Source of the DNA: Klebsiella electrica
GTDB lineage: Bacteria; Pseudomonadota; Gammaproteobacteria; Enterobacterales; Enterobacteriaceae
Length of the DNA: 64,000 nucleotides
Direction of reading: 5' to 3'
NCBI RefSeq assembly: GCF_006711645.1
Contig: NZ_CP041248.1
Span: 124,001-188,000, forward strand
In this document: positions 30,301-34,088 of the stretch, in pieces
How the letters are laid out: each line of letters starts with the position of its first letter
How positions within the stretch are numbered: position 1 is the stretch's first letter
Program-made: the position numbers and the translations under genes
The notes under the pieces: model-generated
What the model was told of the DNA's origin: nothing
Databases searched by the model: none
What the model saw: only the letters and a program-made list of their open reading frames with translations

Positions 30301-31120
30301 GGCACTGTTGCAAATAGTCGGTGGTGATAAACTTATCATCCCCTTTTGCTGATGGAGCTGCACATGAACCCATTCAAAGGCCGGCATTTTCAGCGTGACA
30401 TCATTCTGTGGGCCGTACGCTGGTACTGCAAATACGGCATCAGTTACCGTGAGCTGCAGGAGATGCTGGCTGAACGCGGAGTGAATGTCGATCACTCCAC
30501 GATTTACCGCTGGGTTCAGCGTTATGCGCCTGAAATGGAAAAACGGCTGCGCTGGTACTGGCGTAACCCTTCCGATCTTTGCCCGTGGCACATGGATGAA
30601 ACCTACGTGAAGGTCAATGGCCGCTGGGCGTATCTGTACCGGGCCGTCGACAGCCGGGGCCGCACTGTCGATTTTTATCTCTCCTCCCGTCGTAACAGCA
30701 AAGCTGCATACCGGTTTCTGGGTAAAATCCTCAACAACGTGAAGAAGTGGCAGATCCCGCGATTCATCAACACGGATAAAGCGCCCGCCTATGGTCGCGC
30801 GCTTGCTCTGCTCAAACGCGAAGGCCGGTGCCCGTCTGACGTTGAACACCGACAGATTAAGTACCGGAACAACGTGATTGAATGCGATCATGGCAAACTG
30901 AAACGGATAATCGGCGCCACGCTGGGATTTAAATCCATGAAGACGGCTTACGCCACCATCAAAGGTATTGAGGTGATGCGTGCACTACGCAAAGGCCAGG
31001 CCTCAGCATTTTATTATGGTGATCCCCTGGGCGAAATGCGCCTGGTAAGCAGAGTTTTTGAAATGTAAGGCCTTTGAATAAGACAAAAGGCTGCCTCATC
31101 GCTAACTTTGCAACAGTGCC
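30301..31120 (+). mobile_element. IS26: IS26 copy 1
   Basis: This copy is 820 bp with GGCACTGTTGCAAA terminal repeats. The left flank 8-mer is ctcaatcc and the right flank is tgattcga; the latter is the inverse complement of the outer flank of copy 2. Confidence 0.98.
30364..31068 (+). CDS. tnpA: IS26 transposase (copy 1)
   Basis: A 234-residue IS6-family DDE transposase starting MNPFKGRHFQRDIILWAVRW, with Asp in WHMDETYVKV, Asp in FINTDKAPAYG and Glu in NNVIECDHGKLK. Residue 184 is Gly, as in the reference IS26, and not the Asn of the hyperactive variant. It is intact and should move by copy-in or targeted conservative routes. Confidence 0.97.
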   Translation: MNPFKGRHFQRDIILWAVRWYCKYGISYRELQEMLAERGVNVDHSTIYRWVQRYAPEMEKRLRWYWRNPSDLCPWHMDETYVKVNGRWAYLYRAVDSRGRTVDFYLSSRRNSKAAYRFLGKILNNVKKWQIPRFINTDKAPAYGRALALLKREGRCPSDVEHRQIKYRNNVIECDHGKLKRIIGATLGFKSMKTAYATIKGIEVMRALRKGQASAFYYGDPLGEMRLVSRVFEM

Positions 31121-31219
31121 TGATTCGATGTGTTTGCGGGAAAAAAATCGGCCCAGATCCGCGAAATTTTAATCAGCGAGTCAGCTTGGGAAGAAATGAC
31201 CTGCTTATTCGCACCTTCC
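31121..31219 (+). mobile_element. severed right end of the ISKpn26-like element
   Basis: These 99 bp end with CTTATTCGCACCTTCC (31204-31219), the IS5-type terminal repeat. Joined through the shared 8-mer TGATTCGA to the inverse complement of 32992-34088, they rebuild a 1196-bp element, the length I recall for ISKpn26. It was separated from the rest by the IS26 inversion. Confidence 0.88.
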
Positions 31220-31388
31220 TTAATATAAAGACACAAGCAGAGACATTTTTGGCACGATATAAAAACGCTAAGTTAAAAAATCACTATGACGTGTTGGGTA
31301 TCAAATGTTCACTGGCATAAACCTCTGTTTCTGATGTAAAACAGATTTTCTGAGGAGGCGTAAAACCTCCTCGTACTGCGAAATTGAT

Positions 31389-31889
31389 TTAGTGATAGCG
31401 ATCGATCACGCCAACCAGATAGTGGTCGGTTTGCTGCATGTTGATGCCCGCTTTTTTAGCGCTGCGGACTTCATCCAGAATGATTTGCAACAGCGTCCCG
31501 TCCACGATTTCCTCTTTTCTGTATCGCTTCAGGAAGTTAATCGCTGACTTATCGTTTGCTGCCTGGGCGTCTTCCGTCAAAGAGGTCAGCGCATTAATGC
31601 GCTTCTGGTAATCGCTTACCGTCTGCTCAAACAGATCTTCCAGCGTGGAAAATTCACCGCACCGGGCGTGTTGCTCCTGTAACACCGGCGTGGCGCCGCT
31701 CTGTTTGATGTATTCGTACATGCGCATCATTTGCGTCACCGTATTTTGCGCCTGATGACGCAAAAATAGTGCGGTGCCATTAAGGCTATTCTCGCTGCAC
31801 CTCTGGCTGAGCTGAAGATACAAATTTGAGGTATAAAACTCCTGATTCATTTGCGCATTCAGTTTTTGAACTATTCCGCTAGCGATCAT
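31389..31889 (-). CDS. ftnB: ferritin-like protein FtnB
   Basis: This 166-residue four-helix ferritin-like protein matches E. coli FtnB (167 aa) along its length, for example MNQEFYTSNLYLQLSQRCSE, SLNGTALFLRHQAQ, VTQMMRMYEYIK and LLQIILDEVRSAKKAG. FtnB is a non-haem ferritin paralogue linked to iron-sulphur repair and oxidative stress, with an atypical ferroxidase centre. It sits inside the segment inverted between IS26 copies 1 and 2. About 150 bp between it and the IS5 end (31220-31388) is AT-rich with no clear gene. Confidence 0.85.
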   Translation of the reverse strand: MIASGIVQKLNAQMNQEFYTSNLYLQLSQRCSENSLNGTALFLRHQAQNTVTQMMRMYEYIKQSGATPVLQEQHARCGEFSTLEDLFEQTVSDYQKRINALTSLTEDAQAANDKSAINFLKRYRKEEIVDGTLLQIILDEVRSAKKAGINMQQTDHYLVGVIDRYH

Positions 31890-31950: not shown

Positions 31951-31976
31951 AAAAGCGATTCTTTCGCTTTTTTTAT
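31951..31976 (+). terminator. terminator-like hairpin upstream of ftnB
   Basis: AAAAGCGA and TCGCTTTT form an 8-bp stem followed by TTTTATT, reading rightward. It would end a rightward transcript whose gene is not visible; the rest up to IS26 at 32164 shows no convincing gene. Confidence 0.5.
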
Positions 31977-32163
31977 TGCGCCTGGTTACGCAGTCATATT
32001 CATTTTAAGTCGGGATGCTCCTTATTTAAATATCCAACCCTACTATCGCATTTCTATCTGGCATTATTCTGTGATGGTGTTTCGATATTCACACTCCCTG
32101 TGCCAATCCTTTCTTATCGACAGTAGGAAACTTCCTCCGGCTATTCTGCTGAACACGATTAGG

Positions 32164-32983
32164 GGCACTGTTGCAAAGTTAGCGATGAGGCAGCCTTTTG
32201 TCTTATTCAAAGGCCTTACATTTCAAAAACTCTGCTTACCAGGCGCATTTCGCCCAGGGGATCACCATAATAAAATGCTGAGGCCTGGCCTTTGCGTAGT
32301 GCACGCATCACCTCAATACCTTTGATGGTGGCGTAAGCCGTCTTCATGGATTTAAATCCCAGCGTGGCGCCGATTATCCGTTTCAGTTTGCCATGATCGC
32401 ATTCAATCACGTTGTTCCGGTACTTAATCTGTCGGTGTTCAACGTCAGACAGGCACCGGCCTTCGCGTTTGAGCAGAGCAAGCGCGCGACCATAGGCGGG
32501 CGCTTTATCCGTGTTGATGAATCGCGGGATCTGCCACTTCTTCACGTTGTTGAGGATTTTACCCAGAAACCGGTATGCAGCTTTGCTGTTACGACGGGAG
32601 GAGAGATAAAAATCGACAGTGCGGCCCCGGCTGTCGACGGCCCGGTACAGATACGCCCAGCGGCCATTGACCTTCACGTAGGTTTCATCCATGTGCCACG
32701 GGCAAAGATCGGAAGGGTTACGCCAGTACCAGCGCAGCCGTTTTTCCATTTCAGGCGCATAACGCTGAACCCAGCGGTAAATCGTGGAGTGATCGACATT
32801 CACTCCGCGTTCAGCCAGCATCTCCTGCAGCTCACGGTAACTGATGCCGTATTTGCAGTACCAGCGTACGGCCCACAGAATGATGTCACGCTGAAAATGC
32901 CGGCCTTTGAATGGGTTCATGTGCAGCTCCATCAGCAAAAGGGGATGATAAGTTTATCACCACCGACTATTTGCAACAGTGCC
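32164..32983 (-). mobile_element. IS26: IS26 copy 2, inverted
   Basis: An 820-bp copy in the opposite orientation to copy 1. Left flank cgattagg, right flank tcgaatca. It differs from the other copies by a base change at 32451. Confidence 0.98.
32216..32920 (-). CDS. tnpA: IS26 transposase (copy 2, P157L)
   Basis: The protein is identical to the other IS26 transposases except GRCLSDV in place of GRCPSDV (Leu at residue 157). The DDE residues are unaffected. The change marks this copy as a separate lineage or a recent mutation. Confidence 0.96.
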   Translation of the reverse strand: MNPFKGRHFQRDIILWAVRWYCKYGISYRELQEMLAERGVNVDHSTIYRWVQRYAPEMEKRLRWYWRNPSDLCPWHMDETYVKVNGRWAYLYRAVDSRGRTVDFYLSSRRNSKAAYRFLGKILNNVKKWQIPRFINTDKAPAYGRALALLKREGRCLSDVEHRQIKYRNNVIECDHGKLKRIIGATLGFKSMKTAYATIKGIEVMRALRKGQASAFYYGDPLGEMRLVSRVFEM

Positions 32984-34088
32984 TCGAATCAGCCTATTTA
33001 GGCTATTTTTTCCACCATTTCTGGCGTTATTTCCGGTTTTTACTGAGATCTCTCCCACTGACGTATCATTTGGTCCACCCGAAACAGGTTGGCCAGGGTG
33101 AATAACATCGCCAGTTGGTTATCGTTTTTCAGCAGCCCCTTGTATCTGGCTTTCACGAAGCCGAACTGCCGCTTGATGATGCGAAACGGGTGCTCCACCC
33201 TGGCACGGATGCTGGCTTTCATGTATTCGATGTTGATGGCCGTTTTGTTCTTGCGCGGATGCTGCTTCAAGGTTTTTACCCTGCCGGGACGCTCGGCGAT
33301 CAGCCAGTCCACATCCACCTCGGCCAGCTCCTCGCGCTGTGGCGCTCCTTGGTAGCCGGCATCGGCTGAGACAAATTGCTCCTCTCCATGAAGCAGATTA
33401 CCCAGCTGATTGAGGTCATGCTCGTTGGCCGCGGTGGTGACCAGGCTGTGGGTCAGGCCACTCTTGGCATCGACACCAATGTGGGCCTTCATGCCAAAGT
33501 GCCACTGATTGCCTTTCTTGGTCTGATGCATCTCCGGATCGCGTTGCTGCTCATTGTTCTTGGTCGAGCTGGGTGCCTCAATGATGGTGGCATCCACCAA
33601 AGTGCCTTGGGTCATCATGACGCCTGCTTCGGCCAGCCAGCGATTGATGGTCTTGAACAATTGACGGGCCAGTTGATGCTGCTCGAGCAGGTGGCGGAAA
33701 TTCATGATGGTGGTGCGATCCGGCAGGGCGCTATCCAGGGATAATCGGGCAAACAGGCGCATGGAGGCGATTTCGTACAGGGCATCTTCCATGGCACCGT
33801 CGCTCAGGTTGTACCAATGCTGCATGCAGTGAATACGCAGCATGGTCTCCAGCGGATAGGGCCGTCGGCCATTGCCCGCCTTGGGATAAAACGGCTCGAT
33901 GACAGCGGTCATATTCTGCCATGGCAGAATCTGCTCCATGCGGGAGAGGAAAATCTCTTTTCGGGTCTGACGGCGCTTAGTGCTGAATTCACTATCGGCG
34001 AAGGTGAGTTGATGGCTCATGATGTCCCTCTGGGATGCGCTCCGGATGAATATGATGATCTCATATCAGGAACTTGTTCGCACCTTCC
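32984..34088 (-). mobile_element. ISKpn26-like element (IS5 family), main part
   Basis: The left terminal repeat is at 34073-34088 (complement of CTTGTTCGCACCTTCC). The element reads leftward to the 8-mer TCGAATCA at 32984-32991, beside IS26 copy 2. Its missing 99-bp end lies at 31121-31219. The 4-mers outside the two ends are TTAG and TTAA in IS orientation, so a target duplication is not exact. Confidence 0.88.
33040..34020 (-). CDS. tnpA: IS5-family transposase (ISKpn26-like)
   Basis: A 326-residue IS5-group transposase beginning MSHQLTFADSEFSTKRRQTR. It shows LVDATIIEAPSS and VSADAGYQGAPQREEL with the two Asp residues, and RARVEHPFRIIKRQFG with the Glu. The coding region is complete even though the IS has lost its right end to the inversion, so it could act only on other copies with two ends. 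Confidence 0.93.
   Translation of the reverse strand: MSHQLTFADSEFSTKRRQTRKEIFLSRMEQILPWQNMTAVIEPFYPKAGNGRRPYPLETMLRIHCMQHWYNLSDGAMEDALYEIASMRLFARLSLDSALPDRTTIMNFRHLLEQHQLARQLFKTINRWLAEAGVMMTQGTLVDATIIEAPSSTKNNEQQRDPEMHQTKKGNQWHFGMKAHIGVDAKSGLTHSLVTTAANEHDLNQLGNLLHGEEQFVSADAGYQGAPQREELAEVDVDWLIAERPGRVKTLKQHPRKNKTAINIEYMKASIRARVEHPFRIIKRQFGFVKARYKGLLKNDNQLAMLFTLANLFRVDQMIRQWERSQ

What the first reader, a model, noticed from the sequence alone, without database searches (positions are those of the whole stretch)
30301..34088. IS26-driven inversion can be reconstructed base by base through a split ISKpn26-like element
IS26 copies 1 and 2 face each other. The inner flank of copy 1 (TGATTCGA, 31121-31128) is the exact inverse complement of the outer flank of copy 2 (TCGAATCA, 32984-32991). 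This is the mark left when IS26 copies itself into a nearby site in the inverting orientation. Reversing 31121-32163 joins the 99-bp IS5-type end at 31121-31219 to 32992-34088 and rebuilds an element of exactly 1196 bp with two terminal repeats. The target was therefore inside the ISKpn26-like element, and ftnB was carried in the inverted segment.
Basis: seen in the sequence. Interest (0 to 1): 0.72.

Follow-up and report, generated by a model that had tools for sequence, protein, structure and literature searches.

The report
IS26-driven inversion splitting an ISKpn26
On a large bacterial plasmid, the jumping gene IS26 probably copied itself into a neighbouring jumping gene and flipped the ferritin-like gene between them; related public plasmids show the unflipped one-copy state and a flipped-back state, so it is a well-documented case of a known process.

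Summary
IS26 #1 (30301-31120, +) and #2 (32164-32983, -) enclose 1043 bp with a ferritin-like gene; the inner flank of #1 (TGATTCGA) is the exact inverse complement of the outer flank of #2 (TCGAATCA). The predicted earlier state exists in nature: seven of the plasmids read have one IS26 at the same ferritin-side junction with the ISKpn26 joint unsplit, three in the same tnpR context. The split junction is in 32 of 72,556 plasmid records: 27 have the window order, one looks like that order plus a second such inversion, four have both IS26 copies but the segment unflipped; three of these four were read, with direct 8-bp repeats around #2. An uncommon IS26 allele and a small SNP comparison favour replicative inversion first, weakly. 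The mechanism is known; the case is ordinary.

The parts
29662..30300 (+). resolvase-like recombinase (tnpR) region of the mer transposon, left of IS26 #1; its last 8 bp CTCAATCC are the left flank of IS26 #1
   Evidence: Pfam Resolvase 132.6 bits for 29722-30279
30301..31120 (+). IS26 copy 1 (resident copy in the favoured model), allele C533 in this window
   Evidence: IS6 family transposase NF033587
31121..31128 (+). TGATTCGA, inner flank of IS26 #1 = inverse complement of the 8-bp target duplication
31121..31219 (+). 99-bp tnp-distal end of ISKpn26, displaced and turned round by the inversion
   Evidence: lies directly next to the 1097-bp body in L009, L015, L016, L018, L019, L024, L025
31121..32163 (-). 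inverted segment, 1043 bp
   Evidence: opposite orientation relative to the ISKpn26 body in L009, L014, L015, L016, L018, L019, L024, L025, L026, L027, L031, L032
31389..31889 (-). non-heme ferritin-like protein gene (ftnB-like), 166 aa
32156..32163 (+). CGATTAGG, inner flank of IS26 #2; its complement CCTAATCG adjoins the IS26 in unflipped relatives
32164..32983 (-). IS26 copy 2 (daughter copy in the favoured model), allele T533
32984..32991 (+). TCGAATCA, outer flank of IS26 #2, the 8-bp target site in ISKpn26
32992..34088 (-). 1097-bp remainder of ISKpn26 with the other terminal repeat
33040..34020 (-). ISKpn26 transposase gene, 326 aa, uninterrupted; 48 bp lie between its stop codon and the 8-bp target copy beside IS26 #2
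   Evidence: (NF033581, 366.7 bits)

Best explanation
A resident IS26 (#1) lay between the tnpR end of a mer transposon and a ferritin-gene module whose far side carried an intact 1196-bp ISKpn26. It attacked TCGAATCA inside ISKpn26 in the inverting (trans) orientation by intramolecular replicative transposition. This made a second, oppositely oriented IS26, duplicated the 8-bp target in inverted orientation and turned round the 1043 bp between, cutting ISKpn26 into 99 + 1097 bp. The form spread on large plasmids of several genera. In a few plasmids homologous recombination between the two inverted 820-bp copies turned the segment back. Shown: the present anatomy, a one-IS26 state in the same context, a two-IS26 unflipped state, and a plasmid that reads as a further inversion on top of the window form. 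Inferred: that replicative inversion came first and recombination second.
For: Exact 8-bp inverse-complement flanks. Same-context one-IS26 state, left flank CTCAATCC and right flank CCTAATCG: L024 NZ_CP056575 and L025 NZ_CP056201 with 1196-bp ISKpn26; L026 CP042500 with an IS3-type insertion in its ISKpn26 and a 15-bp gap in its IS26. Same ferritin junction in other contexts: L015, L016, L018, L019. Window order in 27 of 32, plus one that derives from it most simply, against 4 unflipped. Counted by hand on the SNPs, window order at the root needs one flip and unflipped order two, L027 left out. L028 and L033 carry the same signature from further inversions. The trans pathway giving an inverted IS copy and an inverted target duplication is described in PMC7986276 and PMC5142620 (passages read).
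Against: A flip by recombination is reversible, so neither counts nor a comparison resting on about five informative sites fixes the order. The unflipped L027 lost the left block and could not be placed; it lacks the 1-bp gap right of ISKpn26 that L031 and L032 share, and if it is a separate lineage the one-step advantage disappears. T533 is not in every copy: the window is C/T, L035 T/C, L028 C, T and C in its three copies, L039 and L040 C/C, and one-IS26 L025 and L026 have C533, so conversion between IS26 copies must be assumed. ISKpn26 SNPs and the block right of ISKpn26 group L035 differently from the left block, so these plasmids recombine.
Confidence: 0.74

Rival explanations
1. IS26 #2 first arrived in ISKpn26 with an ordinary direct 8-bp duplication (intermolecular cointegrate, then resolution), giving the state seen in NZ_AP022196. 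Homologous recombination between the two inverted IS26 copies then flipped the segment and made the window form.
For: That state exists: NZ_AP022196 and NZ_AP022202 read base by base, NZ_AP022499 read with IS26 #1 truncated, NZ_AP022190 by positions only. All IS26 junctions are the same in both forms. Inversion by recombination between inversely oriented IS26 is proposed for SGI1-K in PMC7056807, beside a replicative route (abstract and passages read).
Against: Needs more steps. It is in 4 of 32 records: two are annotated to one water reclamation centre (Morigasaki), the unopened NZ_AP022190 bears a name of the same series, and NZ_AP022499 is annotated Japan, Tokyo. The shared T533 allele would require the incoming IS26 to be of the resident's own uncommon type, or later conversion. 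The hand count needs two flips instead of one with L027 left out.
Confidence: 0.21
2. The two IS26 copies and the broken ISKpn26 came together by unrelated insertions and deletions, and the 8-bp match is chance.
For: The IS26 left flanks beside the same ferritin junction differ among relatives, so this is a much rearranged region.
Against: 0.00085 perfect matches expected in 56 comparisons; the pieces sum to 1196 bp; unsplit versions occur in nature.
Confidence: 0.01
3. Assembly artefact: the segment's orientation was resolved wrongly between two near-identical inverted IS26 copies.
For: Short reads cannot span 820-bp inverted repeats, and both orientations are in public records.
Against: The window order is in 27 of 32 records from several genera and, among those opened, from the USA, UK, Germany and Japan. 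The second IS26 and the 8-bp duplication stand in either orientation. Sequencing methods of the records were not looked up.
Confidence: 0.03

Closest known systems
IS26 (IS6 family) intramolecular replicative transposition in trans, giving an inversion
   Same: Two oppositely oriented IS26 bracket the inverted DNA; the 8-bp target is duplicated in inverted orientation; one original and one target flank go with each copy (described in PMC7986276 and PMC5142620, passages read).
   Different: Nothing in mechanism. The case is unusual only in that several related states can be read in public plasmids.
SGI1-LK1 (PMC7056807, abstract and passages read)
   Same: There too an IS26-mediated inversion is proposed that duplicated IS26 and a target site lying inside another insertion sequence (IS6100).
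   Different: Genomic island and target element differ; here the pre-event and flipped-back forms were found as sequences.
Inversion by homologous recombination between inversely oriented IS26 (one of two routes given for SGI1-K, PMC7056807)
   Same: Explains the four unflipped two-IS26 plasmids, or else the window form itself.
   Different: Here both orientations are seen with matching junctions.
ISKpn26 (IS5 family)
   Same: 1196 bp, ends beginning GGAAGGTGCGAA, transposase NF033581; annotated as ISKpn26 family in public records.
   Different: Split in the window into 99 and 1097 bp, its two ends now in direct orientation.

Membership tests
IS26 replicative inversion | Two IS26 copies in opposite orientation bracket the segment | tested here: met
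IS26 replicative inversion | 8-bp target duplicated in inverted orientation, one copy inside and one outside | tested here: met
IS26 replicative inversion | The uninverted one-IS26 state has an uninterrupted target | tested here: met
   L024 and L025 in the same context with 99 + 1097 bp adjoining; L026 has the same joint but a further insertion in the body; L015, L016, L018, L019 in other contexts, L009 with IS26 12 bp further in
IS26 replicative inversion | Both copies identical at birth | tested here: inconclusive
   One difference in the window (position 533); both copies T533 in L008, L014, L027 (one truncated), L030, L033, L034, L036; both C533 in L039, L040; mixed in L028, L035
IS26 replicative inversion | The inversion came from transposition itself, not from later recombination | tested here: inconclusive
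   Unflipped two-IS26 isomers exist; the hand count favours inversion first by one step with L027 left out
ISKpn26 / IS5 family | 1196-bp length, matching terminal repeats and IS5-type transposase | tested here: met
ISKpn26 / IS5 family | Equal 4-bp target duplication at both ends (the 4-bp rule is recalled) | tested here: not met
   TTAA and CTAA in the window and in L009, L015, L016, L018, L019: the flanks come from a recombined or mutated site, which does not bear on the IS26 event

The most novel reading that the evidence does not exclude
The pair of inverted IS26 copies acts as a reversible switch for ISKpn26. In the window form the ends of ISKpn26 are in direct orientation, so it should not move. 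In the flipped-back form (2024 bp, both ends in the usual orientation, transposase gene uninterrupted) it could move with IS26 as a passenger. Both forms would coexist in one culture.
Probability: 0.08. Interest if true: 0.4.

Novelty: new member of a known kind. Interest (0 to 1): 0.24.

Why it matters
It is a clean teaching case: a one-IS26 state, the inverted state, a second inversion laid on top and a flipped-back state can be read in public plasmids. It also carries a warning. The inverse-complement flank signature does not by itself tell replicative inversion from insertion plus homologous recombination, because all IS26 junctions are the same in both isomers. Short junction probes cannot separate them; only the order across the whole IS26 can.

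Tried and rejected
Rejected: chance match of the flanks and patchwork assembly (unsplit relatives). Short junction probes cannot tell the isomers apart, so records were classed by relative position and strand of two probes and by coverage of a 7-kb query. IS26 allele 533 is not a strict marker: it is mixed between copies. ISKpn26 SNPs and the right-hand block conflict with the left block; of the 62 variable columns in the right block most are private to L030, whose sequence differs there, and I did not use that block. The left-block comparison used 8 fetched public records and the window; L039, L040, L041 and the mer-region loci were added only at the variable sites. Flips were counted by hand; no tree program was run.

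Limits. The collection may omit records of the window's own genome, so the window is not counted among the 32. One search listed 60 of 100 holders of the tnpR-IS26 junction; of the listed ones outside the 32 I opened four (L024, L025, L026, L029), so other one-IS26 plasmids in this context may exist. Of the 12 T533 records outside the 32, three were opened (L024, L037, L038). Of the 27 window-form records, eight were read base by base (L008, L030, L033, L034, L035, L036, L039, L040); the rest were classed from coverage and position. Left out of the counts: L029 (tnpR-IS26 junction, no ferritin stretch in the part fetched), L010 (shortened ferritin stretch, ISKpn26 cut by IS26), L011 (no IS26 adjoining), L037 and L038 (one adjoining IS26, ISKpn26 present only as 99 + 228 bp). 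In L032, IS26 #1 shows one mismatch and one gap; the mismatch was not placed. A search for print on this ferritin/mer/IS26 arrangement gave 0 papers holding at least 5 of 6 terms, weak evidence of absence. Source of the ferritin gene: four genome contigs at 72-79% identity, and 23 of 5426 E. coli genomes with a place covering at least 80% of the segment, some on chromosomes and not opened; no donor was identified.

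Full report
Observation. The window is part of a 303,830-bp contig of its genome (G000:C2:124001-188000). It holds two facing IS26 copies, 30301-31120 (+) and 32164-32983 (-), 820 bp each, differing only at position 533. Between them are 1043 bp: a 99-bp end of an ISKpn26 (31121-31219) and a 944-bp stretch with a ferritin-like gene (31389-31889, minus strand). Right of IS26 #2 come TCGAATCA and the other 1097 bp of ISKpn26 (32992-34088). TGATTCGA right of IS26 #1 is the exact inverse complement of TCGAATCA. 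Among the eight flanks of the four IS26 copies in the window this is the only perfect match in 56 comparisons, with 0.00085 expected. The ISKpn26 transposase gene is uninterrupted; 48 bp separate its stop from the target copy.

The state before. In L015 (NZ_CP042535), L016 (NZ_CP041047), L018 (NZ_CP056528) and L019 (NZ_MT549900) an IS26 adjoins the same ferritin-side junction (CCTAATCG, the complement of the window's CGATTAGG), the 944-bp stretch has the opposite orientation, and the 99-bp and 1097-bp pieces lie edge to edge as a 1196-bp element. In L016 a further partial IS26 lies just upstream. L009 is alike but its IS26 lies 12 bp further in. In L024 (NZ_CP056575) and L025 (NZ_CP056201) the left flank is also the window's tnpR junction CTCAATCC, so these are a same-context one-IS26 state. 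L026 (CP042500) is too, but with an IS3-type insertion in ISKpn26 and a 15-bp gap in IS26.

How many have the split. A 60-base probe across IS26|TGATTCGA matches 32 of 72,556 plasmid records perfectly. Of these, 27 have the window order: they are the first 27 of the 30 records covering at least 80% of a 7-kb query, and eight were read base by base. Three, NZ_AP022190, NZ_AP022196 and NZ_AP022202, have the two probes on opposite strands; the two that were opened have both IS26 copies, the segment unflipped, and IS26 #2 between two direct TCGAATCA. NZ_AP022499 (L027) is the same with IS26 #1 truncated. The last, NZ_CP055539 (L028), is most simply the window order plus one more inversion: an IS26 copy in the ferritin stretch, with inner flank CTTAATGG and outer flank CCATTAAG, inverse complements again (derivation worked out by hand).

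Two routes. Intramolecular replicative transposition in trans yields the window form in one step, as described in PMC7986276 and PMC5142620 (passages read). An ordinary insertion with direct duplication followed by recombination between the inverted IS26 copies yields the same letters; both kinds of route are offered for SGI1-K in PMC7056807 (abstract and passages read). Every IS26 junction is the same in both isomers, so the flank signature cannot decide.

What tips the balance. First, position 533: T is in 42 of the 5000 plasmid records returned at the cap, and 30 of the 32 junction holders are among them. T533 is also in the IS26 beside the unflipped module in L024, L037 and L038, so the resident may have had it before the event and the second copy looks like its daughter. 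Against this, L025 and L026 have C533, the window is C/T, L035 T/C, L028 mixed, and L039 and L040 C/C. Second, in a 14.4-kb block left of the event 11 SNP columns separate nine sequences. Site 21555 (A; outgroup L041 has T) unites the unflipped L031 and L032 with the window-form L036 and L039; site 29668 and base 24 of the ferritin stretch unite L036 and L039; site 29559 (A; outgroup L024 has G) unites the other window-form plasmids compared. Window order at the root costs one flip, unflipped order two. This is weak: few sites, one outgroup per site, signs of recombination elsewhere, and L027, unflipped, could not be placed. Third, the inversion signature recurs in the group: L028 as above, and L033 (NZ_AP022447), where IS26 copies at 27297-28116 and 31912-32731 have flanks GTTGTGGG and CCCACAAC around a Tn3-family transposase gene that has the other orientation in L034.

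Verdict. The claim that the flanks are diagnostic needs the correction above. The process is established IS26 biology, so interest is low to moderate.

Noticed in passing
L028 (NZ_CP055539) 4004-7514: What reads as a second IS26 inversion on top of the window form, into the ferritin gene, with inverse-complement flanks CTTAATGG / CCATTAAG; the annotated ferritin-like protein is shortened.
   Followed up: yes
L033 (NZ_AP022447) 27297-32731: Another IS26 inversion signature (GTTGTGGG / CCCACAAC) around a Tn3-family transposase gene, apparently by the counterpart of the window's third IS26 (40083-40902, flank AGCTGAAC).
   Followed up: partly
31220-31223 and 34089-34092; L009, L015, L016, L018, L019: The 4-bp flanks of ISKpn26 are unequal (TTAA and CTAA) in the window and in five unsplit relatives, so this ISKpn26 copy may itself be a recombinant joint between two insertions, or one flank has mutated.
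   Followed up: partly
L012 (G000:C3:72000-88000) 7013-9529: The same genome carries a second copy of the ferritin stretch on another contig (882 bp, one mismatch), next to a 1196-bp ISKpn26-like element 98.4% identical over its 1097-bp part; the search showed no IS26 in that 16-kb stretch.
   Followed up: partly
25838-25897: The start of merT holds a 15-bp tandem repeat (four SEPQ in the protein in the window); the aligned plasmids differ there by 15-bp steps. A script to count copies in relatives matched nothing.
   Followed up: partly
L014 7766-9789: In the unflipped two-IS26 form ISKpn26 spans 2024 bp with both ends in the usual orientation and IS26 inside, outside the transposase gene, so it may still be mobile.
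   Followed up: no
L015, L016, L018, L019 and L024-L026: One IS26 edge next to the ferritin module (CCTAATCG) is constant while the other flank differs among plasmids, as expected if IS26 moved the module between contexts.
   Followed up: no
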